This document shows, in pieces, positions 1 through 12,559 of a DNA stretch of 12,851 nucleotides. Made by a program: the position numbers and the translations under genes. The notes under the pieces were generated by a model, which was given only the letters and a program-made list of their open reading frames with translations, ran no database searches and had not been told where the DNA came from. The first letter of the stretch is position 1, and the number at the start of each line of letters is the position of its first letter. Source of the stretch: Peptostreptococcaceae bacterium (GTDB lineage Bacteria; Bacillota_A; Clostridia; Peptostreptococcales; Acidaminobacteraceae); contig JABXKX010000264.1 in assembly GCA_013619035.1 (NCBI GenBank), positions 1 through 12,851 of the forward strand, in the 5' to 3' direction.

Positions 1-949
1 CAATATTTTGAATGACTTTCATTGAAAAAGGTACAGATCCTCCAGACACAAATTTAAATCCTCTATCATTAATCAGATAAGAGATCAATTTAAAGCCATC
101 ATCTAGATTACTCGCCACATAATCAAAATCTAAATGTGTTCTTTCATAACCTTTTGGATAAAATTCTGATGTTCTACCACCTTTAACAGGAGCAACTGAC
201 CAATCATTATCCTTTATGTAAACATTCACAAGCTTTATCTCAGTGAGAGCAATGTGTTTACTCACAATTTGCTTTCTTGCTAAATGCAACAGTTCATTCT
301 CAAATTTATCAGCATGCAAATGATTGTAGAACAGAACTGGTAAACGTAGCTTTTTAGAATCTTTGACCTCTTTCTTACTCACTTCTTTCATCAATGAGTT
401 TAGTTGATTCTTCTCATCTGTACTTAATACACATTTAGAAAGGCGTTGTAAGGGTCCATAATTTTTATCATCAAATGAATTTATTTGCTTAATAACTTTT
501 CTTAAAGATACTTTTGATTTTTCAGGTTGCTTTGTATGCCACTGAATCTTTATAGGTTCAATACAAGCGTCACAAGCTAAAGGCACAACAGGCATGACAT
601 GATCGACTTTATTCTCCATTGTCCGTAATCCATTAAGAAGTAAATTAACTGACGTTACAACACAACCTTTTCTACTCTCGAGAATATTTAAGACACTACA
701 TAGTTCATTGACAAAATAATTTGTATCTATTTTAGATTTCACATCTAATATCAAACCATTGGAATAATGTTTAATCAAATAATGACATGTTTTCTCACAA
801 ACTGAACAACACTCACCTTTAAAGTTAAAAATGACTCTATCTTCTATTTTAACAAGAGATAATATAACTATATCACCACATGCAATACCATCTGATTTCA
901 ATAACACATCAGGATCTAAGATGCGATTTCCAAGCAATACTTTTCTCAT
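1..949 (-). CDS. IscU/NifU-like domain fused to NTase-like domain (3' end outside window)
   Basis: The reading frame is open from an ATG at 947-949 to the left edge (316 codons, no stop), so the C-terminus is missing. The start overlaps the desulfurase stop by one base (TAATG) and is preceded by GAGGAG. Residues 1 to about 135 look like an IscU/SufU/NifU-N scaffold: GIACGDIV (C24, D26), then FKGECCSVCEKTC (C47, C48, C51, C55) where the family has FxGxGCAIxxAS, then LACDAC (C126, C129) near the position of the third scaffold cysteine. The order matches the scaffold family but the second motif is degenerate and has extra cysteines. After a lysine-rich linker, residues about 250-316 look like the start of a nucleotidyltransferase fold: GG at 257-258 and HLDFDYVA with D274 and D276; any third carboxylate lies beyond the edge. 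The neighbouring cysteine desulfurase is the expected sulfur donor for such a scaffold. The IscU-like call is moderate and the NTase call weaker. The real substrate is unknown. Confidence 0.75.
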   Translation of the reverse strand, partial: MRKVLLGNRILDPDVLLKSDGIACGDIVILSLVKIEDRVIFNFKGECCSVCEKTCHYLIKHYSNGLILDVKSKIDTNYFVNELCSVLNILESRKGCVVTSVNLLLNGLRTMENKVDHVMPVVPLACDACIEPIKIQWHTKQPEKSKVSLRKVIKQINSFDDKNYGPLQRLSKCVLSTDEKNQLNSLMKEVSKKEVKDSKKLRLPVLFYNHLHADKFENELLHLARKQIVSKHIALTEIKLVNVYIKDNDWSVAPVKGGRTSEFYPKGYERTHLDFDYVASNLDDGFKLISYLINDRGFKFVSGGSVPFSMKVIQNI

Positions 950-2151
950 TACTTATTCTCCTCTTTGTCCAACGCCTCTAAAGTCTTTAAAAGATACTCA
1001 AGATTGTATTGATCGTTACAAAGTCCCCAAGACAATCTAACCAAACTAGACACTCCTAAAGCATTCACAGTCGGTTGAGAACACATATGACCACTTCTTA
1101 ATATGATACTTTGTTCGCTAAATGCCTGTTCTAAATCATGTGAATGCATATACTTGTGTTTGATAGCTAAAATCGTTTCACACGATGACTCGCCAGATGG
1201 TATCATCTCAAAATTGTTTAGTGCTTCAATTTTACTTCTAATCATTTCATAGAAACACTTATTATGCATTCTAATACGATCAAAAGTGATATCTTCAATA
1301 AAACGACACGCTTCACTCCACGCCAAAATTAAACCAATATCAAAAGTCCCTGCTTCAAATCTTTGAACACCATCAGCCCATGTAGGTGTGCTTCCATAAG
1401 CATTCCATACCATGCCACCTCCTAATATCAAAGGTTCCATTTGTTGTGTCATGCCTTTTTTAATAAATAAGCCACCAATATTTTTAGGTCCATACATTTT
1501 ATGTGCAGATAAGGCATATGCATCAGCATTCAGTTTTGATAAATCTAATTTCTTACTAGCCACGGCTTGTGAAATATCAAGAATCAACTTAGCATCAAAT
1601 CTATCCGAATACTTCTTAAGTAATTCTACATCTACAGTCACACCAGTCACATTGGATATATACGTTGAAGCTATAACTTTCACAGGTAAGTGGGTCATAT
1701 CATCTAAGACTCTATAATCTAAATCACCTGATTCTGTAAGAGGAATCTTTACCAATATAGCGCCTACTTCTTTCACAAGTTTCATCCAAGGCAGTAAAGC
1801 ACTATGGTGTTCCAATTCAGTGACGATAACCACATCTCCAGATTCAATGGTATTTCTTAAACCATTAGAAATAACATTTAGCGCTTCTGTTGCATTCTTT
1901 GTGAACACTAAATCATAAGCTTCAGAAGCTGAAAAGAAATCTAAGATTTGCTTTCTACCATCTTTTAAACTTATATTAGCTTTTTCTCCTAAGAAGCCTC
2001 CTGTTCTATTAGATGAAACCCCAATCGTTTCATGATACTGAATCCATGCATCCATCACACGTCTAGGCATAAATGTTGTTGCAGAGTGATCAAAATAATG
2101 AAGATTCGGAGAGTTTTCAAATACTTTGAAGTTTGATTTAACATTATCCAT
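949..2151 (-). CDS. Type II (SufS/CsdA-like) cysteine desulfurase, class V aminotransferase fold
   Basis: A 400-aa cytoplasmic PLP enzyme of normal SufS length. It would remove sulfur (or selenium) from cysteine and hold it as a persulfide. Visible landmarks: YFDHSATT near residue 19, ELEHHSALLPW with the cofactor-stacking histidine near 115-116, D192 in LILDISQ (binds the PLP pyridine nitrogen), SAHKMYGP with the PLP lysine K218, and RSGHMCSQP with the persulfide cysteine C357. RSGHMCSQP matches the SufS RxGHHCAQP loop and puts it in type II rather than IscS/NifS type I. The start is ATG after GGAGG with 7-nt spacing. It overlaps the glycosyltransferase gene by 8 nt, and its stop overlaps the IscU-like gene by 1 nt, so all three are probably translated together. 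It could be a dedicated sulfur donor for the operon rather than housekeeping Suf, because no sufBCD genes are adjacent in the window. Confidence 0.92.
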   Translation of the reverse strand: MDNVKSNFKVFENSPNLHYFDHSATTFMPRRVMDAWIQYHETIGVSSNRTGGFLGEKANISLKDGRKQILDFFSASEAYDLVFTKNATEALNVISNGLRNTIESGDVVIVTELEHHSALLPWMKLVKEVGAILVKIPLTESGDLDYRVLDDMTHLPVKVIASTYISNVTGVTVDVELLKKYSDRFDAKLILDISQAVASKKLDLSKLNADAYALSAHKMYGPKNIGGLFIKKGMTQQMEPLILGGGMVWNAYGSTPTWADGVQRFEAGTFDIGLILAWSEACRFIEDITFDRIRMHNKCFYEMIRSKIEALNNFEMIPSGESSCETILAIKHKYMHSHDLEQAFSEQSIILRSGHMCSQPTVNALGVSSLVRLSWGLCNDQYNLEYLLKTLEALDKEENK

Positions 2152-3154
2152 TGTTTGCCTCCAAAGAATCTAAAACTTCTTTATAAACCGTATGAACATC
2201 TAATGTCTTCATACACTCATGTTTATTCTCGCACTTACCACTCCAAATATTACATTCTAAGCACTTATATTCTTTTTCAATGGTAGTGCCAAGACCGTAT
2301 TTCCATATACCATTAATAACACCTTTAGTTGGTCCACAGATCATATAAGTTGGCACTTCTTGCCATATAGACAGATGAAGAGCGGCAGAATCATTACCAA
2401 TAACAAATCTACATCTCGAAAATAGTTCCTTGTATCCTTGAAAACTATTTACGCTTTTAACACTAATGCTACCAGTCGTTTTAGAATTAAGATATTCATA
2501 TAATTCAACTTCTTCTGGTCCTAGTATAAATATAACTTTATAATTTAAACTCAATAATTTAGCAAGTTCTACATACCTCTTGGAATCCCATCGCTTTAAT
2601 ATGCCAAGTTCACTACTACCGGGTAAAATCGCTACTATGTTATTTTCTTGCCATCTCATGTTCTCTGAATACTTAAATTCAAGATCCTTGAAGTATGTTT
2701 TTGCAATTTTTATATGACGTTCCATCTTGTTTACATCCCAAGAATCAATGTTACAAATATGTGTATACATAAGATGTGCACCATCTTTTGCAGTATGGTG
2801 AGATCGTCCTATTCTTACAGGAATATTTGCCAGCAAACCTATGAGAGCACTTTGAAATACACCATGTAAATCAATGTATACATCATACTCCTTGCGTCTG
2901 ATCTCTAACACAACCTTTTCAAGTTTTGAGATATCACACACTCTTGAGTTGTTAAAAGTGTTACTTGAAGTTTCAAGTCTTGGTTGGAGAAGAATATCAT
3001 CTATAGCATCACATATTCTACAGGTGTCAGCCATAATTTCAAGACACGTAAAGTCTACCTCACAAGATGGGTATGTTGCTTTCAGAGATTCTATCAACGG
3101 AAATGACCGAATGATGTCTCCATGATTTCTCAGTTGACATATGAGTATTTTCAT
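2144..3154 (-). CDS. Glycosyltransferase family 9, heptosyltransferase-like
   Basis: A 336-aa GT-B enzyme resembling the ADP-heptose:LPS heptosyltransferases WaaC/WaaF. N-terminal domain: MKILICQLRNHGDIIRSFPL (GD at 12-13, the acceptor-side loop), then DVYIDLHG. C-terminal domain: ILPGSS, KRWDSKRYVELA and FVIGNDSAALHL (D255, H260), the usual nucleotide-sugar-binding region of GT9. A cysteine cluster at C298, C301, C308 and C314 with H312 resembles the CxxC...C...C tail seen in heptosyltransferase II. The hldE-like gene in the same operon supports an activated heptose as donor. No membrane segment is seen, so the enzyme is likely cytoplasmic or peripheral. The start ATG directly abuts the preceding stop (TAGATG) with GGAGG just upstream. 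The acceptor cannot be read from sequence: lipid, glycan, protein or a small molecule are all possible if the host lacks LPS. Confidence 0.88.
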   Translation of the reverse strand: MKILICQLRNHGDIIRSFPLIESLKATYPSCEVDFTCLEIMADTCRICDAIDDILLQPRLETSSNTFNNSRVCDISKLEKVVLEIRRKEYDVYIDLHGVFQSALIGLLANIPVRIGRSHHTAKDGAHLMYTHICNIDSWDVNKMERHIKIAKTYFKDLEFKYSENMRWQENNIVAILPGSSELGILKRWDSKRYVELAKLLSLNYKVIFILGPEEVELYEYLNSKTTGSISVKSVNSFQGYKELFSRCRFVIGNDSAALHLSIWQEVPTYMICGPTKGVINGIWKYGLGTTIEKEYKCLECNIWSGKCENKHECMKTLDVHTVYKEVLDSLEANNG

Positions 3155-3802
3155 CTAATCCTCCAGGACTAATAATATCTTATTAAACGCTTTTGATTCT
3201 TCTGGAAATATAAGATCTACTTCCACTTTAGCATCAAGAAACAAACGAATAAATGGCTCTTTTTCAAAGTCAATTAAACGATTTTGACAGATTGTCTTCA
3301 CCACTTGCAAATGTTTGTATGTCTTGTCTATGGAATGTCCTCTATTTAAACGACCAGATATCTTCTTCAGACGGTCTTCCAGTAAAGATTCTATAGTCAT
3401 AACATTACAAGCTATCGAGTAATCCGGTATGTTCATTCTCACATATGGCATATCATCTTCAGTCAAAAGTATATCCACCTTGTTAAAGTGCTCACCAGCT
3501 TCCCAGAATAAAGTGACAACCTCCATTCCAAAGCTATTTTGATTTAAGTAACCAAAATAACCTTCTTGGTTCAAGTAGTCTATAAGCGCCTCTTTATTAT
3601 CCTTTTTAAGTGCAAGGTCAATATCCTTTAATGCGTATGAAAAATCATTTGTATGGACAACATATGCCAATCCACCTCGAACGACAGCATCAAAATTACT
3701 GCATAAATCATTCAACAGCTGCATCATGTAATCCGGTAGTTGATGATATTCATTAACACTAAGGGGATAGTCTTTACTCCCATAATTGCAATTTCTAATC
3801 AT
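3155..3802 (-). CDS. Stand-alone NTase-fold protein (minimal nucleotidyltransferase)
   Basis: A 215-aa protein with the signature of the nucleotidyltransferase superfamily (MNT/AbiEii/aminoglycoside adenylyltransferase-like): VVRGGLAYVV (GG at 43-44), KDIDLAL with the metal-binding pair D60/D62, and a third carboxylate D110 in KVDILL. The spacing from GG to DxD and on to the third strand fits the fold, so an active enzyme transferring NMP from an NTP is plausible. Residues from about 130 on are probably a helical substrate-binding part (SLLEDRLKKISGR). The start overlaps the upstream gene by 8 nt (ATGATTAG) with AAGGGGG as ribosome binding site, and the gene ends where the GT9 gene begins. 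Alternatives are a sugar-phosphate or small-molecule nucleotidyltransferase in the heptose pathway, or an AbiEii-type toxin. The operon context favours the first. The substrate is unknown. Confidence 0.78.
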   Translation of the reverse strand: MIRNCNYGSKDYPLSVNEYHQLPDYMMQLLNDLCSNFDAVVRGGLAYVVHTNDFSYALKDIDLALKKDNKEALIDYLNQEGYFGYLNQNSFGMEVVTLFWEAGEHFNKVDILLTEDDMPYVRMNIPDYSIACNVMTIESLLEDRLKKISGRLNRGHSIDKTYKHLQVVKTICQNRLIDFEKEPFIRLFLDAKVEVDLIFPEESKAFNKILLVLED

Positions 3803-4457
3803 CCATTTCCCCCTTCAAAATTAAGGTGTGTAATTCTACATTCCCTAAATGAGGTGTGTGGAATGCTTTTAGAATTGCAGGATATTTAAAGTCATTATTT
3901 TTATACTCATATGATTTAAGTTCTGATCTTAATTGCAACTGCATTTTTCTAGCAAACGCAGCAAGACTGCAAGTCGCACTTTCTGTTTTTTCAATCCATA
4001 AGAGAATAGCATGACTATTCCAAATATCCTTATGGTTACTTAAACCATATCTTAAAGAAGGATACCATGGTTGACCACCATACAATCCAGCATGAAGTAA
4101 TTCACTAAAAATCAGTTGTTCTCTAACATCTACTTTAAAACCATTTTCAGATATATACATAATGATCTTTTCTTCCTCATCTACAGCAAAAGGAAAAATC
4201 AACAATGGCCATCGACGATAAACAATCTCACCTAAATTATTAGGTATACTTAATTCACCTAATAAAGTCCATAAGTTCGTTATAAAACAGTCTTTCAGCT
4301 TTTCGACATCAGGCAAATCCATCATCAAATCTCTTATAAGAAGCATCTCTTTATTCAGACTGCCAGATGTAGCATCTCCTGACAAAATCTCTACGGCCTC
4401 TTCGGATATGCCTAATTTATCAACAAAAATCTGGTTTTCCTTATTCCATTGATTCAT
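3795..4457 (-). CDS. Uncharacterised 220-aa protein in the heptose operon
   Basis: I do not recognise this family. The protein is soluble-looking, with no signal peptide or membrane segment. It has an acidic N-terminal helical part (DLMMDLPDVEKLKD), a hydrophobic core stretch YRRWPLLIFPFAVDEEEK, an aromatic/glycine patch LLHAGLYGGQPWYPSLRYG around residue 120-140, and a C-terminal segment with several histidines (AFHTPHLGNVELHTLIL). The conserved-looking histidines and aromatic residues could bind a ligand or metal, but no known motif is complete. It overlaps the upstream kinase gene by 17 nt and the downstream NTase gene by 8 nt, with GGAGGG before the ATG, so it is clearly a translated member of the operon. 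Its position between a P-loop kinase and an NTase suggests it may be a partner subunit or act on the same substrate; this is inference from context only. Confidence 0.8.
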   Translation of the reverse strand: MNQWNKENQIFVDKLGISEEAVEILSGDATSGSLNKEMLLIRDLMMDLPDVEKLKDCFITNLWTLLGELSIPNNLGEIVYRRWPLLIFPFAVDEEEKIIMYISENGFKVDVREQLIFSELLHAGLYGGQPWYPSLRYGLSNHKDIWNSHAILLWIEKTESATCSLAAFARKMQLQLRSELKSYEYKNNDFKYPAILKAFHTPHLGNVELHTLILKGEMDD

Positions 4458-5172
4458 GAATACCCTCCATATAGTTAGATAGTATCTTTCTTATATTTTC
4501 TGTTACTTGATTTTTAGACATTGAACCGTTTATATAATGAATTGGAATATTCTTGTCTAGTCTGTCTATGAACTTCTCAAACAAGACCAAATCTGATTTC
4601 ATCTTATCAACCATATCCATTTCACGAAGTGGTTCTCTATTTCGTTTCACAACTCTTTCATGAGCTTCTTCCGGTGATAGATCAAAGAATATAATTACAT
4701 CCGGTAAAACGAATCCTTTCAAATGCTTACAAAGTTCATCCCATGCTTTCTCAAAATCACCATAACGATCATGGAAAGTACTGAAATTATAATAGTAGGT
4801 AGATAGTATGCCTCTAGACATAAGAATATATTTCGAACCAACACTTTCCGCTTCTTCAACTGCTAATCTTAAATCCATAGATAAAAGAACTGGATTCATC
4901 CACGGATGCTCCTTATGAACCTGCTTCCATATTGGTTTATTGGAATATAACGCTCTCAGTAGAAGACCAACAGAAGATTTTGTTGGTAAATCAATATAAT
5001 ACGATTTACCGAATACAGCTTCCAAGTCACTAGATGCTTTTTTAATTTGAGTAGTTTTACCTGCACCAGGCAAGCCTTCAAACGAAAATATTGGAACGTT
5101 CTTACTAAACGTTCTTTTGGAGAAATCCTTTTGGATTTCATCCACTACACTCTTGATAATACTTATATCCAC
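4441..5172 (-). CDS. Thymidylate-kinase-like P-loop kinase
   Basis: Predicted P-loop kinase of the nucleoside-monophosphate/dTMP kinase type, 243 aa from the chosen start. Walker A GLPGAGKTTQ lies at residues 33-42, followed by a FFDLSPEEAHERVVKRNREP segment that matches the LID/arginine region of dTMP kinases (DVPPExAxxR...RxR). An aspartate or glutamate partner strand (LSMDLRLAVEEAE) and YILMSRGILSTYYY fill the usual DR(Y/F) region, here SRG rather than DR, so the phosphate acceptor may not be dTMP. I chose GTG at 5170-5172 because GGAAGG lies 7 nt upstream. A longer reading from TTG at 5193 adds seven residues but has no visible ribosome binding site. It may phosphorylate a nucleotide, nucleoside or sugar-like intermediate of the pathway. 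The specific substrate is unknown. Confidence 0.85.
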   Translation of the reverse strand: MDISIIKSVVDEIQKDFSKRTFSKNVPIFSFEGLPGAGKTTQIKKASSDLEAVFGKSYYIDLPTKSSVGLLLRALYSNKPIWKQVHKEHPWMNPVLLSMDLRLAVEEAESVGSKYILMSRGILSTYYYNFSTFHDRYGDFEKAWDELCKHLKGFVLPDVIIFFDLSPEEAHERVVKRNREPLREMDMVDKMKSDLVLFEKFIDRLDKNIPIHYINGSMSKNQVTENIRKILSNYMEGIHESME

Positions 5173-5179
5173 TTTAATA

Positions 5180-5185
5180 CCTTCC
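5180..5185 (-). promoter_or_regulatory. Ribosome binding site deciding a GTG start
   Basis: GGAAGG on the minus strand, 7 nt before GTG 5170-5172. The competing upstream TTG at 5191-5193 has no purine-rich sequence at the right distance, so this site favours the shorter kinase product. Confidence 0.6.
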
Positions 5186-6211
5186 CTATTCAATAGAAAT
5201 CACAAACGATTCGTAACCATATTTATCATGAATAAACGAAACGATTTCATTTTCATCAGTTGTTTCTTTTAACAGCAATTGCATTGAGCCATCACCATGA
5301 GAACCAACACCTTTTGCACCATAGATAAAACTTCTCAAAGCTTCATCTTCTAGAAGTTCATGCATCTTTGGTGCTTTTAAATTCACTAGAGAATACTTAG
5401 CAATATTTAAGTCAAAAACTTCTTGAGCTTGATACATGATCTCTCCTAGTTTCTTTAAATCACCTTGGTGAATCGCGACCTTAGCAGATTCTACAATCAT
5501 TTGATTCGTATCTCCTAAAGCACGATAGATGCCATGATGCTCTTCTATATCAAAATTTAAGTATGGTTGATTTAAATCATATAGGATTTTTGATGTATCT
5601 TTATAACCGTTTAAATCAACCAGTAAAATCCTCAATTTAGTTTTATTTTCTATTGGTTGAACATGTAGTCCATGATTCATAAAAGTCAGTGCTAACAATC
5701 GATTGCCATATCCGCAGATCTGGTCTAACTTACCACACATACTTCCAGCATTTCTTTCAGCTTCATAAGCCAAAGACATCTCTTGATGTATATCTAGCCC
5801 TAGGTCATATAAATTGTTAAAAACCCGTACCACTGCCATACATATGGATGCACTAGAAGCTAGTCCCTTTTTTATAGGCAGGTCTACTTTGACACATTCA
5901 ATAGATGCACCACCTACATTGTAGTATTTCTTCATCACATCAAATGACTTTAGTACATAGTTACCAGAATGTTCTTTTGAATCCACACTCGCTTCATTAT
6001 GTATCCATTCAATATCTAAATTCAAATGATTGCATTTATATTTATATTTATCTGATTTCATTGCTTCAAAATACAGGCCTCTATTTAATCCTAGTACAAT
6101 TGCAGCACCCTCTCTAATTGTAGAGTTTAAATCCTTGTATTCTGAAGCCCAATCACTATGTTCACCTAACAAACACAGTCTGCCAGGCATAAAAATTTCA
6201 CATTTATCCAT
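5186..6211 (-). CDS. GHMP-family sugar kinase
   Basis: A 341-aa small-molecule kinase of the galactokinase/mevalonate kinase/HddA superfamily. Motif 1 is PGRLCLLGEHSDW (9-21, like galactokinase PGRxxLxGEHxDY), motif 2 is the ATP-binding loop LPIKKGLASSAS (111-122), the probable catalytic aspartate is D163 in CGKLDQICGYG, and motif 3 is GAKGVGSHGDGSMQ (298-311). Motif 3 departs from the usual GAGxGG form, with S, H and D in the glycine loop, which may reflect a distinct substrate. In ADP- or GDP-heptose pathways a GHMP kinase (HddA) phosphorylates the anomeric position of heptose 7-phosphate; here the HldE-like protein already has a kinase domain, so a second sugar or a second position may be the target. 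The start overlaps hldE by 8 nt, with AAGGAGTC as ribosome binding site. Galactokinase, fucokinase-like or heptose kinase activity cannot be told apart by eye. Confidence 0.87.
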   Translation of the reverse strand: MDKCEIFMPGRLCLLGEHSDWASEYKDLNSTIREGAAIVLGLNRGLYFEAMKSDKYKYKCNHLNLDIEWIHNEASVDSKEHSGNYVLKSFDVMKKYYNVGGASIECVKVDLPIKKGLASSASICMAVVRVFNNLYDLGLDIHQEMSLAYEAERNAGSMCGKLDQICGYGNRLLALTFMNHGLHVQPIENKTKLRILLVDLNGYKDTSKILYDLNQPYLNFDIEEHHGIYRALGDTNQMIVESAKVAIHQGDLKKLGEIMYQAQEVFDLNIAKYSLVNLKAPKMHELLEDEALRSFIYGAKGVGSHGDGSMQLLLKETTDENEIVSFIHDKYGYESFVISIE

Positions 6212-7637
6212 TTGACTCCTTATTAATCTTATTAATTATACTTGTCGTTGACAAACCGTTATACATATCTAGAAACTCTATACGGTCTACAAATTCAGCT
6301 TCAGGGAGAGTTTTATTTTGATATTCATTACCTTTTACATAAACATCAGGCTTTATAAGCTTAATCAGATTAATGGCTGTATCTTCTTCAAATAAAACCA
6401 CACTATCAATTGCCTCTAATGAAGATAAAATTAGCATACGATCATTCTGATTGTTAATCGGTCTATCTTCACCTTTCAAACGCTTAATAGAATCATCTGA
6501 ATTAACACCTAGTATGAGCCTCTTCCCTTTAGCTTTTGCACCTTGTATCAATTGTATGTGACCAGAATGAAGTATATCAAAGCAACCATTTGTAAATACT
6601 ATGCTCTCACCTTGTACTCTCCAAGCTTCAATTAAATCTTGTATATTGTTACGACTGACTATCTTGTTACTGATGTTCATTTTAACAAAATATCGATAAC
6701 ATTCGTGTATCAATTCATTTCTAGAAACAACCTTTGTTTCCTCATGAAGCACCGCTAGTCTACCGGCTAGATTTAAGACAATGCCTAGTAGTTCAAAGTC
6801 AAGTTTTTCCCTTATAACAGATGTAAACAAAGCTAAAACGGAATCACCTGCTCCAGATACGTTCACAGGATAAACAGCCTCTATGCTAGAGTAATGATAT
6901 TTGGTGCCATCATAATAAATCAGGCCGTCTTTACCACAAGTCAATAAAATGCTTTTGCAATTCAATTCTAACACCATAAGATCTAATTGCTTTTCTGGTG
7001 ATAAATCACAAGCTTCTAAAGTCTTACAAAAACTTTCTAATTCATCTAAATTCAAAACTACATGATCAATGTTTCTATAGGCCTGCCAATGAGTGCTCCT
7101 AGTCGTTGAGACTACAGGAACATTTTTTTGATTACAACTCTCAATAATTCTTGAAATCATCTCTGATGTAAGATATCCGAGATGATAATCAGCAATTACA
7201 ACTACATCATATTCTGAAATATCATAATCAAAAGATAAATCTAGATTCAATGATGGATTGTGATCTAATCTCATTAACTGCTGATCCGAAACATAGATAC
7301 GTTCCTTCTTAAGATTCCAGTCCTTAACTTCAATAAGAAGTGAATCATCTATATTGTATTTTGAGAATAACTCGTAAACTCTCTCATCACCTACTGGTGA
7401 AAGCACTGAAACTTGCTTTACGAAGCTACTGATATTAGCAGCGATGTTTCCAGCACCTCCCAAGCAACATCTTTGCTCTTTAATGTCTACAGTGGGTATT
7501 GATACTCCTGATGATATCCTATCAATACTGCCATAGGAGTATATATCTAAAATGACTTCACCAATCACCAATACCTTGAGGTTTTCCCCTTTGCCTATTA
7601 AATTAATAGCATCATTTAAAAGTTTCCCGTCATGCAT
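6204..7637 (-). CDS. hldE: HldE-like bifunctional heptose 7-phosphate kinase / heptose 1-phosphate nucleotidyltransferase
   Basis: A 477-aa two-domain protein, the same length as E. coli HldE as I recall it. Residues about 20-315 form a PfkB/ribokinase domain with LGGAGNIAANIS near 59-70 and the catalytic SGAGDS loop at 261-266 (D265). Residues about 345-475 form a cytidylyltransferase-like domain with FTNGCFDILHSGH (HSGH 357-360), RLKGEDRPINNQ, LFEEDT, PDVYVKG and the terminal GLSTTSII, all in the order of HldE. The first domain phosphorylates D-glycero-D-manno-heptose 7-phosphate at C1; the second transfers AMP after removal of the 7-phosphate. The enzyme is cytoplasmic. AGGAGG lies 8 nt before ATG, and the gene is 18 nt after the HAD phosphatase gene. 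GmhA, GmhB and HldD homologues are not in the window, so precursor supply and the final epimer cannot be judged. The nucleotide (ADP or other) is inferred from similarity. Confidence 0.92.
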   Translation of the reverse strand: MHDGKLLNDAINLIGKGENLKVLVIGEVILDIYSYGSIDRISSGVSIPTVDIKEQRCCLGGAGNIAANISSFVKQVSVLSPVGDERVYELFSKYNIDDSLLIEVKDWNLKKERIYVSDQQLMRLDHNPSLNLDLSFDYDISEYDVVVIADYHLGYLTSEMISRIIESCNQKNVPVVSTTRSTHWQAYRNIDHVVLNLDELESFCKTLEACDLSPEKQLDLMVLELNCKSILLTCGKDGLIYYDGTKYHYSSIEAVYPVNVSGAGDSVLALFTSVIREKLDFELLGIVLNLAGRLAVLHEETKVVSRNELIHECYRYFVKMNISNKIVSRNNIQDLIEAWRVQGESIVFTNGCFDILHSGHIQLIQGAKAKGKRLILGVNSDDSIKRLKGEDRPINNQNDRMLILSSLEAIDSVVLFEEDTAINLIKLIKPDVYVKGNEYQNKTLPEAEFVDRIEFLDMYNGLSTTSIINKINKESNG

Positions 7638-7655
7638 GTAACATGCCTCCTCTTA

Positions 7656-8264
7656 CTAAATGTAGTCTAATACTTCTCTTAAATCATCAATCACAGTTAT
7701 ACCAGGTATATCACCACAACGAATACCTAAAACTTTAAGATTGGCATTTGATGCAGATTGAATACCAACCTGCGAATCTTCTATAACAATCACTTCATCA
7801 CATTCTAAACCCAACTGATTAAGACAGTATTCATAAATATCAGGAGAAGGTTTGTTATTTAAAACATCCTCAGGTGTTGCGATAATATCAAAAATATCTT
7901 TCTTACCATAAATATCTATCAATTCCTTCCCCTTACCAGATGCAGTCGCAACAGCTAATTTTAAATTCCTATCCATAAGAAGCTTCAACAGTTCCAAAGC
8001 ATCCTCATAAAATATTTCAGGTAGATCATTTAAAATATCTATAAATATCTTATCCTTTAATATCCCCATCTCAATTAAAAATTCATGCTGTCCTAATAGA
8101 CTTTTTAAGCCTACCTTCTTTCCTTTAGATCTAATAAGAGTATCAAATTGCTCTCTAGATAAATCTATATCATAAAATTTTAGCATTTCACTATATGCTT
8201 GAAAGTGGATCTGTTCAGAATCTATAAGAACCCCATCCAAATCAAATATTATACCCTTTATCAT
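7656..8264 (-). CDS. HAD-superfamily phosphatase (beta-phosphoglucomutase/phosphatase-like, subfamily I)
   Basis: A 202-aa HAD hydrolase with all four motifs: FDLDGV (D8 nucleophile, D10 acid/base), AVATASGKG (motif II), NKPSPDIY (motif III lysine) and VIEDSQVGIQSA (motif IV). A helical cap between residues about 15 and 85 puts it in the beta-PGM/phosphatase group. The start was set at ATG 8262-8264, 4 nt after AGAGGTGA. An in-frame ATG at 8312 would place the start upstream of the apparent promoter, so I reject it. It is the first gene of the operon and sits 18 nt before hldE. HldE action needs a phosphatase that removes the 7-phosphate of heptose 1,7-bisphosphate; the normal enzyme GmhB belongs to a different HAD subfamily, so this protein may stand in for it, or act on another sugar phosphate. 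That role is inference. Confidence 0.88.
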   Translation of the reverse strand: MIKGIIFDLDGVLIDSEQIHFQAYSEMLKFYDIDLSREQFDTLIRSKGKKVGLKSLLGQHEFLIEMGILKDKIFIDILNDLPEIFYEDALELLKLLMDRNLKLAVATASGKGKELIDIYGKKDIFDIIATPEDVLNNKPSPDIYEYCLNQLGLECDEVIVIEDSQVGIQSASNANLKVLGIRCGDIPGITVIDDLREVLDYI

Positions 8265-8303: not shown

Positions 8304-8382
8304 TCTATTCATTCAACTTTAACCAAGAAATGTGTCTTTTGACGCTACCATTCTACTTTAAGCACCATGGCAACTTAGATTA

Positions 8383-8640
8383 CTAATAACCTTGTAGGAT
8401 TTTCTCGGAATTCCTTATCTTGGTTGCATAGGCGAGCAGCGAATTTGTCGTGACCAGCCTCATCACTTCAATTCGCACTGGTCGAAGACTACGTCTTCTG
8501 CTCGTGCATGCATCCGGCCTGGGAAGATTCTTATAATTGTCATACTTACGCATGATGTTAAGACTACCATTGATATCAACATTGATGAATTGAGCCTTTG
8601 ATTTAAAATACTTCTTAATCGCTCTCATAACCCCCCTCAA
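8383..8640 (-). pseudogene. tnpB: C-terminal remnant of IS605/IS1341-family TnpB (OrfB)
   Basis: An 85-aa open stretch whose first 35 residues match the end of TnpB proteins: FINVDINGSLNIMRKY corresponds to the family's INADVNGSLNIxRK, which carries the third RuvC aspartate. PVRIEV follows, as is common at the end of these proteins. About three quarters of a normal TnpB (RuvC I and II, zinc finger, N-terminal domain) is missing. No TnpB-like sequence was found upstream to 8990 on this strand, and no tnpA is present, so the element is a dead fragment. Its 3' end holds the fold described at 8433-8504. It lies just upstream of the heptose operon promoter. The family assignment rests on the INxDxNGSLNI motif and the context. 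Confidence 0.7.
8433..8504 (-). ncRNA. Candidate omega (TnpB guide) RNA scaffold with pseudoknot
   Basis: Within the 3' part of the TnpB relic four perfect complementary pairs are packed together. The outer pair is CGAGCAG/CTGCTCG (8433-8439 with 8498-8504). A local hairpin is GAAGAC/GTCTTC (8484-8489 with 8493-8498). Two interleaved pairs are GACCAG/CTGGTC (8452-8457 with 8478-8483) and GCGAATT/AATTCGC (8439-8445 with 8470-8476). The last two cross, so they form a pseudoknot. Pseudoknotted guide RNAs overlapping the 3' end of tnpB are an established feature of IS605-type elements. The imperfect palindrome around CCATGG at 8360-8376 may belong to the element's right end. Assignment as omega RNA is inference; the base pairing is seen directly. 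Confidence 0.5.
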
Positions 8641-8992: not shown

Positions 8993-10927
8993 ATGAAAAA
9001 TCTAAAGATTAGCACCAAATTGATTATTAACACTGCCATTACACTGATTATTTTGGTTGTATTGGGCGTTTATGCCTATTACTCAATAAATGACATCGTA
9101 GACAACAAGGCAGCACTGATGAATGAGAATGCGGAAAGTGAAACACTGGTACTTGAACTCAGGAAACATGAAAAAGATTTCCTTATGAGGGATATTTCAG
9201 ATGAAAATTATTACGAAACTGGTGAAAGCAAGTATTTAACAAAGTTTGGCGATACTCAGGATTTATTTTTGCTTCATTTGGAAGCAATGAAAGATTTTGA
9301 AACACTTAAGAAAAGTGCAGAAATGACTGAAGATATAGATATGATTATCGCTAATCTAAATGAGTATTCGACACTGTTTAGTCAAGTCGCTTCAGCCTAT
9401 ACTCAACGAGGCTATCGTGATTACGGCTTAATTGGTGAACTAAGAGCTGCTGTACACGCTTTGGATGATGAAGCCTTACAGTTTGATGACGAACACATTC
9501 AAACACTCCTTTTACGTATCAGAAAGGATGAAAAGGATTATTTCTTAACGGCTGACGTCTCTTATATTGAGAAAATTCATCAGAAGACGACTGAACTCGA
9601 ATCATATATTTCTGGATCTAGCGCCAATAGCAATATAAAAAGTAGAATGCTTGCTTCATTGAATCAATACGTAGAAGCATTTGACTCCATCACGGAAATA
9701 GATGAGATTATCGGTCGCAGTCAGGATGAAGGCCTGACAGGAGAATACCGCGAAACAGTTTCTAAGATTGAACCACTTGTCCAAGAGCTGAATGGATCCA
9801 TCGAAGGTATGATTGATTCTGAAATAAGTACGATGTTAAGAAACACTCTCATCTTTATTGTAGTCGCAGTACTTATTTCGATTGCATTGTCAGCATTCAT
9901 CATCAAATCAATCACCAAACCATTGGCCTCTTTGGTGATTGCGGCCGATAAAATTGCTGATGGAGATCTGGATGTTAATATTACATCCCATTCAAAAGAT
10001 GAAATTGGCATTCTCTCTAAATCTTTTGAGAAAATGACCACAAACATAAATGATGTTCTGGCCAATATCAATACCGCTTCAATACAAGTGGCTTCAGGAT
10101 CAACACAGTTGTCTGATTCCAGCATGTCATTGTCACAAGGCGCTACAGAACAGGCGAGTTCCATAGAAGAATTATCTGCTTCAATTGACGAAATCACAAC
10201 ACAAACACATGCGAATGCAAAGAATGCAGAAGAGGCTAAAGGCGTAACAGCCGAAGCACATCACTATGCCATAGAAGGTAATGGTCATATGCAAAACATG
10301 CTTCAGGCAATGAATGACATCAATGAGTCTTCAAGCAATATTTCAAAAATAATCAAAGTCATTGACGACATTGCGTTTCAAACGAACATCTTAGCATTGA
10401 ATGCTGCCGTTGAGGCTGCAAGAGCCGGACAACATGGTAAAGGATTTGCCGTTGTCGCTGATGAAGTGAGAAACCTTGCAGCTAAATCTGCTAATGCTGC
10501 AAAAGAGACGACCGTTATGATTGAAGAATCAATTGTAAAGGTTGATGAAGGCACAACGATTGCCAAATCGACTGCAGATGCTTTGACTATGATTGTAAAT
10601 TCCATCTCCACTATTACCAATTCTGTTAATGACATATCGATGGCTTCACAAGAACAGGCCATTGGAGTTGAGCAGATTAGTCAGGGCTTAACACAGATAT
10701 CCGATGTTGTTCAGACCACGAGTGCTACTGCGGAAGAAACAGCTGCTGCCAGTGAGGAATTGCAAGGACAAGCGGAGACACTCAAGACGCAGGTGGCTTC
10801 ATTTAAACTAAAAGGTAATACGCATGTTTCAGCCATCCAGCGCACACCATCATCTATTCCTGAGAATAGAAGTGATAGCCCCGCAAAATATATCGCGTTG
10901 AATGTTTCTGAATTCGACAAGTATTAA
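8993..10927 (+). CDS. Methyl-accepting chemotaxis protein with HBM sensor domain
   Basis: A 644-aa inner-membrane chemoreceptor. Transmembrane helix 1 is at about 11-31 and helix 2 at about 283-305; the roughly 250 residues between them are extracytoplasmic. This sensor region carries two copies of an RKxEKD(F/Y) motif, at 57-63 and 177-183, the hallmark of the helical bimodular (HBM) ligand-binding domain. A HAMP domain follows (about 305-358, ITKPLASLV...DGDLDV), then a long coiled-coil signalling domain whose tip [20 protein letters not shown] (457-476) and following [18 protein letters not shown] contact CheA and CheW. Glutamine/glutamate-rich segments ([25 protein letters not shown]) are probable methylation regions. 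There is no C-terminal CheR-docking pentapeptide. AGAAAGGG precedes the ATG by 10 nt. The gene stands alone, on the opposite strand from its neighbours and between mobile-element relics, and looks slightly GC-richer than the heptose operon, so acquisition by transfer is possible. Its ligand is unknown. Confidence 0.95.
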
Positions 10928-11686: not shown

Positions 11687-12559
11687 CTATGCAACCTTAT
11701 GATTGAAGCGTTCTCTAAAACCACACTTCTGACATAATTCTTCAACTAGAATGCACTGTTCAAATCCTTTTTTCATTTTAATTGTTCGCTCTGAATTAAG
11801 AATATCATGGATTTTTTCTTCTTTTATTTTGCCAAGAGGAATATCACCTTCTTGATCAAGGCAACAGGGTAAAACTGTGCCATCTACTAGAATAGCAATC
11901 TGCTGTTTGATACCATAACATGAACCTACATCACTGATTTTATGATGTTTTAATGAAGGCCATGTAAATTCAGCACTCTGGCTTAAATATAGATGATCTT
12001 TTAATCGAATGCCTTTATCTTTAATGACTTCTTCTTTTAAATCCACATCAAGTTCAAAGAAATCTTTGATCAGTGTTAGAATCTCCTTGTTGTGGTTCTC
12101 TCCATCTTGAGTGCTTTCTAGATTCCAAAGTCTTAACTCAACGTATTTCTTGTTACGTTTGGCTTCTTTAGCAAACTCAAAAATAGTTGTAAGATAAGAC
12201 AACAACTCTTCTCTTCCTTGTTGTTCAAAGCTCTGTAAAGAAAAACTGATTTGTCTCAATCCATCTGATTCTAACAACTGATCGTACCATTTATGTATTA
12301 AGGTACCATTTGTAGTTAAATTCACTTTCATATCTCTTTGATTGCACAGTTCAATCATCCTAATCAAATCTGGGTGAAACGTAGGTTCTCCCTTTACATG
12401 CAAATATATATGTTTTGTTCGACCTACAAGATCATCAAGTATCTGCTCAAAAAATTCAATATCCATAAATTCTTTGGCCCGTTCACTTGTGGGACAAAAA
12501 CTACAAGATAGATTGCAAGCATTGGTAATCTCTATATAAACTCTTTTTATTAATGACAT
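11687..12559 (-). CDS. Radical SAM protein with SPASM/twitch-like cysteine-rich tail
   Basis: A 290-aa cytoplasmic radical SAM enzyme. The [4Fe-4S] cluster that binds S-adenosylmethionine is held by C15, C19 and C22 (ACNLSCSFCP, the CxxxCxxC motif). KGEPTFHPD supplies the GGE-like SAM-binding turn (GEP), and LTTNGTLI is the usual next strand. The C-terminal region has six further cysteines, C214, C232, C233, C269, C276 and C279, in a SCYG...LPCCLD...QC...CQKCGF layout as in SPASM or twitch domains, which bind auxiliary Fe-S clusters. Such proteins modify peptides or small molecules, but no precursor peptide or partner gene is beside it, so the substrate is unknown. AGAAAGGATG lies just before the ATG at 12557-12559. 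The gene is monocistronic, with its own terminator. It may simply be one of the widespread uncharacterised radical SAM/SPASM proteins. Confidence 0.88.
   Translation of the reverse strand: MSLIKRVYIEITNACNLSCSFCPTSERAKEFMDIEFFEQILDDLVGRTKHIYLHVKGEPTFHPDLIRMIELCNQRDMKVNLTTNGTLIHKWYDQLLESDGLRQISFSLQSFEQQGREELLSYLTTIFEFAKEAKRNKKYVELRLWNLESTQDGENHNKEILTLIKDFFELDVDLKEEVIKDKGIRLKDHLYLSQSAEFTWPSLKHHKISDVGSCYGIKQQIAILVDGTVLPCCLDQEGDIPLGKIKEEKIHDILNSERTIKMKKGFEQCILVEELCQKCGFRERFNHKVA

What the first reader, a model, noticed from the sequence alone, without database searches (positions are those of the whole stretch)
1..8264. Heptose-activation operon coupled to a sulfur-mobilising and nucleotidyltransfer module
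HldE-like enzyme, HAD phosphatase, GHMP kinase and GT9 transferase make a coherent activated-heptose set. The same overlapping operon also encodes a dMP-kinase-like protein, an unknown protein, an NTase, a SufS-type desulfurase and an IscU-like/NTase fusion. The heptose part is established chemistry; the coupling to persulfide delivery and two NTase folds is not one I recognise. It may make a sulfur-containing or otherwise modified NDP-heptose, a glycosylated surface molecule or a small-molecule product. Activated heptoses are also known innate immune ligands (ALPK1 pathway), which would matter if the host lives with animals.
Basis: partly seen in the sequence, partly recalled or inferred. Interest (0 to 1): 0.78.

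Follow-up and report, generated by a model that had tools for sequence, protein, structure and literature searches.

The report
Mobile sulfur, sugar and nucleotide operon
A rare set of tightly packed bacterial genes, found again in the same order in three other bacteria and probably moving between species, looks built to make an unknown sulfur-containing, sugar-decorated small molecule; the molecule itself and the role of heptose are not yet known.

Summary
The operon is real and the coupling is not accidental. Seven window genes (HldE-like, GHMP kinase, dTMP-kinase-like, NTase, GT9, SufS-type desulfurase, SufU/NTase fusion) recur in the same order in Anaerotignum lactatifermentans and a Lachnospiraceae MAG; Dialister succinatiphilus has the same order without GHMP. 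In two of the three hosts the operon is a 33% GC island, so it looks horizontally acquired. In all three, five more genes follow: membrane GT2, variant radical SAM, PhnP-like hydrolase, P-loop kinase, and a PP-loop protein with the CxxC...C pattern of [4Fe-4S] thiolases. This makes a complete-looking sulfur relay. The window ends before that region.

The 'unknown protein' is NDK-like by fold. The IscU-like/NTase fusion is confirmed by fold.

'Heptose' is the weakest part. The GHMP kinase is galactokinase-like, and the HAD matches beta-phosphoglucomutase models best. gmhA and gmhB were not found in two of three relatives. No LPS locus was recognised in the fetched flanks.

Best reading: a mobile biosynthetic operon for a thiolated, glycosylated, nucleotide-like metabolite. 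The product is inferred.

The parts
7656..8264 (-). HAD-IA phosphatase, first gene; not found in the three related loci
   Evidence: ORF can also start at 8312; no tblastn match in L004-L006 at E 1e-3
6204..7637 (-). HldE-like PfkB kinase + nucleotidyltransferase (HxGH and GxSTT motifs kept)
   Evidence: 27-38% identity to L004-L006
5186..6211 (-). GHMP kinase, galactokinase-like; its relative in L006 is fused to a GalU-like domain
4441..5193 (-). dTMP-kinase-like P-loop kinase
   Evidence: 47-49% identity to L004-L006
3795..4457 (-). NDK-like protein with helical N-terminal extension; rare family, no match in L004-L006
3155..3802 (-). Pol-beta-type NTase (GG...KDxD) of unknown substrate
   Evidence: 29-32% identity to L004-L006
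2144..3154 (-). GT9 glycosyltransferase (heptosyltransferase family)
   Evidence: 43-45% identity to L004-L006
949..2151 (-). SufS-type cysteine desulfurase; SAHKMYGP and RSGHMC motifs kept
   Evidence: 40-43% identity to L004-L006
1..949 (-). SufU/IscU-like domain fused to NTP_transf_5-type NTase, cut by the window's left end

Best explanation
A horizontally mobile biosynthetic operon. SHOWN from sequence: gene order kept in four loci; its own desulfurase; a SufU-fold domain with its four ligand positions invariant and fused to an NTase; NDK-like and dTMP-kinase-like proteins; an HldE-like enzyme and GT9; and, in the three relatives, a PP-loop protein with the [4Fe-4S]-thiolase cysteine pattern, a radical SAM protein, a PhnP-like hydrolase, another kinase and a membrane GT2. 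INFERRED: the desulfurase takes sulfur from cysteine and passes it as persulfide to the SufU domain. From there it goes to the PP-loop enzyme encoded downstream, which adenylates a carbonyl oxygen on a nucleotide-like core and replaces it with sulfur. The dTMP-kinase-like, NDK-like and P-loop kinases and the two NTases phosphorylate or nucleotidylate that core. The HldE-like and GHMP(-GalU) enzymes each make an NDP-sugar, used by GT9 and GT2 respectively. The product is a thiolated, glycosylated, nucleotide-like metabolite. Whether the HldE sugar is really heptose is open.
Against: No product, transporter or resistance gene was recognised in the operon. The five downstream genes are not visible in the window itself. 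The PP-loop protein could act on RNA instead. The substrates of both NTases and of the kinases are unknown. The membrane GT2 (one or two hydrophobic stretches) also fits a lipid-linked or surface glycan. NDK-like is missing from the three relatives (one search had no positive control), so it is not essential to the core pathway. In G001 and G003 the operon desulfurase is the best sufS match of the genome (of 5 and 8 matches, none over the cut-off), so there it is not shown to be an extra copy beside a housekeeping SufS. In L006 the flanks have nearly the operon's GC.
Confidence: 0.45

Rival explanations
1. Surface glycan or glycolipid operon: HldE-GHMP-GalU make NDP-sugars, GT9 and the membrane GT2 build a short glycan, and the sulfur genes thiolate one sugar or an anchor.
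For: GT9 and a membrane GT2 with DND, DD and QxxRW motifs; an NAD-dependent epimerase/dehydratase (UDP-xylose-synthase-like by eye) and a PMI-type cupin beside the Dialister copy.
Against: No flippase, polymerase, ligase or exporter was recognised in the ORF lists of the three fetched stretches (not all frames were scanned against libraries); dTMP-kinase-like, NDK-like, PP-loop and PhnP-like proteins are unusual in glycan loci (from general knowledge).
Confidence: 0.22
2. RNA modification system: the SufS-SufU-PP-loop relay thiolates a tRNA base, the NTases and GTs decorate it.
For: PP-loop protein passes Pfam cut-offs for the PP-loop, ThiI and tRNA_Me_trans families and has its best NCBIfam scores with TilS, MnmA, TtuA and LarE; NTase half resembles MenT toxins, which I recall as acting on tRNA; no exporter recognised.
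Against: Two NDP-sugar makers and a membrane GT2 are not expected for tRNA work; the NCBIfam scores are far below the cut-offs listed, and LarE, which acts on a small molecule (PMC9283937, abstract in search listing), scores about as well.
Confidence: 0.13
3. Ordinary ADP-heptose operon (LPS-type, or ALPK1-ligand producing) with sulfur genes as passengers.
For: HldE model 294 bits; rfaE_dom_II within 1 bit of its cut-off; GT9; HENase-like GxSTT motif (motif from PMC11461863).
Against: gmhA and gmhB not found in G001 and G003; sulfur genes kept in 3 of 3 relatives; no LPS genes recognised in the fetched flanks.
Confidence: 0.1
4. Fe-S cluster assembly or repair module beside unrelated genes.
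For: SufS and SufU-fold proteins.
Against: No SufBCD-type protein among the operon genes identified; the SufU domain is part of a 600-aa NTase fusion; Dialister has a separate SufS over the cut-off. In G001 and G003 no SufS over the cut-off was found, so there this rival is less well excluded.
Confidence: 0.05

Closest known systems
4'-thionucleoside clusters (albomycin abm; 4'-thiothymidine thmA-C; PMC12691670, passages)
   Same: Radical SAM enzyme and a nucleoside kinase in one cluster; sulfur put into a nucleoside
   Different: thmA-C holds a radical SAM enzyme, a nucleoside-kinase homologue and a triphosphatase; albomycin AbmM takes sulfur from its own Fe-S cluster. The term 'cysteine desulfurase' has 0 occurrences in that paper's main text. 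Here there is a SufS-SufU relay, a PP-loop protein, sugar activation and two GTs
ADP-heptose pathway (HldE, GmhA, GmhB) and septacidin-type use of NDP-heptose (PMC11461863, part 1 of 2 of the whole text)
   Same: HldE-like bifunctional enzyme, GT9
   Different: GmhA and GmhB not found in two hosts; HAD and GHMP are of other subfamilies; sulfur and nucleotide genes added
PP-loop tRNA thiolation with a [4Fe-4S] cluster (TtuA/TtcA/NcsA class, PMC10067955, passages)
   Same: PP-loop with CxxC and a distal cysteine
   Different: Here it sits with a desulfurase, a U-type carrier fused to an NTase, and sugar and nucleotide enzymes
6-thioguanine and closthioamide clusters (recalled; one search listed two papers, neither read)
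   Same: PP-loop enzyme thiolating a small molecule
   Different: No SufU-NTase fusion or heptose-type genes, as far as I recall

Membership tests
HldE / ADP-heptose pathway | Score over NCBIfam equivalog cut-offs | tested here: not met
   294.3 of 521 (PRK11316), 164.7 of 345 (dom I), 180.8 of 181.5 (dom II)
HldE / ADP-heptose pathway | Isomerase GmhA and phosphatase GmhB in the same cell | tested here: inconclusive
   No genome held for the window. Relatives: gmhA at E<=1e-3 in 1 of 3 genomes, gmhB in 1 of 3; G001 and G003 have neither; completeness not told
HddA heptose 7-phosphate kinase (GHMP) | Score over NCBIfam cut-off | tested here: not met
   20.8 of 600; best model galactokinase, 69.6 of 443
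SufS desulfurase | Score over sufS cut-off | tested here: not met
   302.5 of 475.1
SufS desulfurase | PLP lysine and catalytic cysteine motifs (recalled) | tested here: met
   SAHKMYGP and R[ST]GHMC in 4 of 4 rows
SufU/IscU carrier | U-type fold | tested here: met
SufU/IscU carrier | Ligand residues C, D, C, C (recalled for SufU) | tested here: met
   C24, D26, C48, C96 invariant in 21 of 21 rows
SufU/IscU carrier | Pfam match | tested here: not met
   No family at E<=10 for residues 1-141
NDK | NDK fold | tested here: met
NDK | NDK sequence family | tested here: not met
   No NDK match in Pfam at E<=10; in PDB sequences three NDK homologues at E 0.4-1.7, below two unrelated matches at E 0.00064 and 0.09
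NDK | Catalytic histidine | tested here: inconclusive
   H200 and H210 invariant in 11 of 11; H200 lies near the NDK histidine only by residue offset from the ranges (NDK numbering recalled)
[4Fe-4S] PP-loop thiolase | SGGxDS, CxxC and distal C | tested here: met
   In 3 of 3 relatives; the gene would lie outside the window
[4Fe-4S] PP-loop thiolase | PP-loop superfamily by Pfam | tested here: met
   L004: ATP_bind_3 39 of 27, ThiI 35.9 of 20.5
[4Fe-4S] PP-loop thiolase | Score over an NCBIfam equivalog cut-off | tested here: not met
   L004: TilS 41.7 of 93.6, MnmA 32.1 of 284; L005: LarE 33.1 of 150

The most novel reading that the evidence does not exclude
An undescribed class of thiolated, heptosylated (or otherwise glycosylated) nucleotide metabolite, made by bacteria from a mobile low-GC operon. 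Sulfur would be delivered by a new device, a SufU-type persulfide carrier fused to a nucleotidyltransferase, so that one protein both tags the substrate and hands over the sulfur.
Probability: 0.3. Interest if true: 0.85.

Novelty: new variant of a known kind. Interest (0 to 1): 0.6.

Why it matters
It is a concrete, conserved gene set with a cultured type strain among its carriers (Anaerotignum lactatifermentans DSM 14214), so the question 'what sulfur compound does it make' can be tested directly. It would add a new sulfur-delivery architecture (SufU-NTase fusion) and possibly a new class of thio-metabolite. It also shows that HldE-like and GT9 genes can occur without a recognised heptose supply, a caution for inferring ALPK1 ligands from HldE hits alone.

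Tried and rejected
Protein 5 (A1) in genome contigs (37 pattern stretches, 0 confirmed) and viral contigs (76, 0), and protein 5 alone in plasmids (0), found nothing. A2 in viral contigs: 268 stretches, 0 confirmed. SufU-NTase P0012 and the L004 PP-loop protein in plasmids: none. GHMP in plasmids: 27 records, the best four from Nostoc; in the three whose surroundings I read no operon partner was recognised. The L004 radical SAM protein in plasmids: 497 records, none covering 80% of the query; of the 12 rows listed 9 are annotated MSMEG_0568 family, at 23-27% identity over 57-71% (one context read). TMPK-like in plasmids: 2 records (one read). A G815 match is a general NTP_transf_5 protein near another radical SAM protein and ABC genes, without the operon: rejected. 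PADLOC gave desulfurase matches to SspA and DndA and weak matches for the dTMP-kinase-like and SPASM radical SAM proteins; an anti-phage reading was not pursued. Rfam and tRNA scans of the window: none. Literature for this cluster: searches gave no paper whose title or abstract describes it; most subscription papers are not held. Desulfonema limicola (P0007, NDK-like) was not reached as a genome. The window's host was not identified.
Full report
What is there. The window carries nine minus-strand genes from 8264 down to its left end, with gaps of 18, -8, -8, -17, -8, 0, -8 and -1 bases. In order they are: HAD phosphatase, HldE-like kinase/nucleotidyltransferase, GHMP kinase, dTMP-kinase-like protein, a protein with no family match over a cut-off, a small NTase, GT9, a SufS-type desulfurase, and a protein cut by the window end.

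Conservation of the operon. A scan of genome contigs with this family gave 33 pattern stretches and three confirmed loci: L004 (Anaerotignum lactatifermentans DSM 14214), L005 (Dialister succinatiphilus YIT 11850) and L006 (Lachnospiraceae MAG SIG304). tblastn of the window proteins found HldE, GHMP, dTMP-kinase-like, NTase, GT9, SufS and SufU-NTase in this order in L004 and L006. L005 has the same order without GHMP. Window proteins for which no match passed E 1e-3 in any of the three loci: HAD, NDK-like, and the neighbouring MCP and SPASM radical SAM protein. A search of the three whole genomes with the NDK-like alignment was also empty, without a positive control. The family is rare. Among sampled genomes it was found in 1 of 397 of the family of G003, 1 of 12 of the family of G002 and 1 of 392 of the order of G001, in each case the centre itself. 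In the phylum sample it was 2 of 398, the centre and a partial match that is not this system.

Mobility. Operon GC is 33.6% (window), 33.0% (L004), 32.7% (L005) and 33.5% (L006). The flanks held are 44.1/38.9% for L004 (3,216 and 1,410 bases), 42.7/52.1% for L005 (2,989 unmasked and 5,218 bases), but 33.7/35.3% for L006. So in two of three hosts it stands out as an island. Transposase-like frames lie upstream in L004 and L005 (recognised by eye).

What the window does not show. In all three relatives five further genes follow the fusion gene. They are a GT2 with DND, DD and QxxRW motifs and one or two hydrophobic stretches; a radical SAM protein with CX5CX2C (in L004 variant_rSAM 156.7 bits, cut-off 125); a PhnP-like metallo-hydrolase (in L004 75 of 272 bits; HxHxDH in 3 of 3); a P-loop kinase (L004 by Pfam; L005 and L006 by similarity to it, seen by eye in the ORF lists); and a PP-loop protein with SGGKDS, CxxC and a distal REGC. 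The last pattern fits the class in which three cysteines hold a [4Fe-4S] cluster that binds the sulfur (PMC10067955, passages). SufS, SufU fold and PP-loop protein together make a plausible full thiolation relay. That these genes also lie left of the window is an inference.

The heptose question. For heptose: HldE model 294 bits, the nucleotidyltransferase domain within 1 bit of its cut-off, GT9, and a GxSTT motif (window MYNGLSTT) close to the (F/L)XXGXSTT motif of heptose nucleotidyltransferases; its first residue is Met, not Phe/Leu, and the fifth is Leu, not the Arg tied to wider NTP use (PMC11461863). Against: the kinase half scores 164.7 of 345. The GHMP kinase is galactokinase-like and in L006 is fused to a GalU-like domain (100.7 of 326.8 bits); in L004 the GalU-like part appears split across frames. 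gmhA and gmhB were not found in G001 and G003, while both ring in Dialister G002 (gmhA over its cut-off, gmhB-like below it). In G001 the only rfaE_dom_II match is the operon's; G003 has one more, weak (60.3 bits, in a 132-aa frame). Dialister also holds a second HldE-like gene (499-aa frame, dom II 198.6 bits, over the cut-off). Its operon copy scores 26.1 of 181.5 on the nucleotidyltransferase model and lacks the HxGH motif. One reading is that a host with its own ADP-heptose no longer needs that half, which would favour heptose; but its kinase half is kept. Beside the Dialister copy are an NAD-dependent epimerase/dehydratase, UDP-xylose-synthase-like by eye, and a PMI-type cupin, perhaps replacing GHMP-GalU. 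I leave heptose as possible, not shown.

Mechanism. See the best explanation: sulfur from cysteine to SufS, SufU domain, PP-loop enzyme, then a nucleotide-like core; kinases and NTases activate the core; two NDP-sugars feed GT9 and GT2. Every catalytic step is inferred from family and motif. The desulfurase is an extra copy in Dialister, which has a SufS over the cut-off elsewhere; in G001 and G003 the operon copy is the best sufS match and no other passes the cut-off. My confidence that the operon is a real conserved unit is about 0.95; that it makes a thiolated compound about 0.6; that this compound is a glycosylated nucleotide-like metabolite about 0.45.

Known systems. Known thionucleoside clusters use a radical SAM enzyme with a nucleoside kinase (PMC12691670, passages); NDP-heptose is used in septacidin (PMC11461863). 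I found no description of this operon in searches of the open-access library (listings only). It is filed as a new variant of a known kind (a small-molecule biosynthetic operon) because the product is unknown.

Noticed in passing
window 8993-10927 (+): Methyl-accepting chemotaxis-type protein on the opposite strand, 39% GC against 33.6% for the operon (name by eye); not part of the operon.
   Followed up: no
window 11687-12559 (-): Radical SAM/SPASM protein, best model the tungsten-oxidoreductase maturase (89 of 380 bits), with weak viperin-type PADLOC matches; no match in L004-L006.
   Followed up: partly
window 8383-8640 (-): 85-aa frame that by eye resembles the C-terminal end of a TnpB-type protein; no Pfam or PHROG match. 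Might mark an insertion next to the operon.
   Followed up: partly
L001, L002, L003 (Nostoc plasmids): GHMP kinases 34-36% identical to the window's, annotated only as GHMP kinase, with no operon partner recognised beside them.
   Followed up: partly
L005 4955-6232: Operon HldE of Dialister with a degenerate nucleotidyltransferase half in a genome that has another HldE-like gene over the dom II cut-off.
   Followed up: yes
L006 2-3118: 1038-aa open frame (cut at its start by the stretch) upstream of the operon without any Pfam match.
   Followed up: no
   Followed up: no
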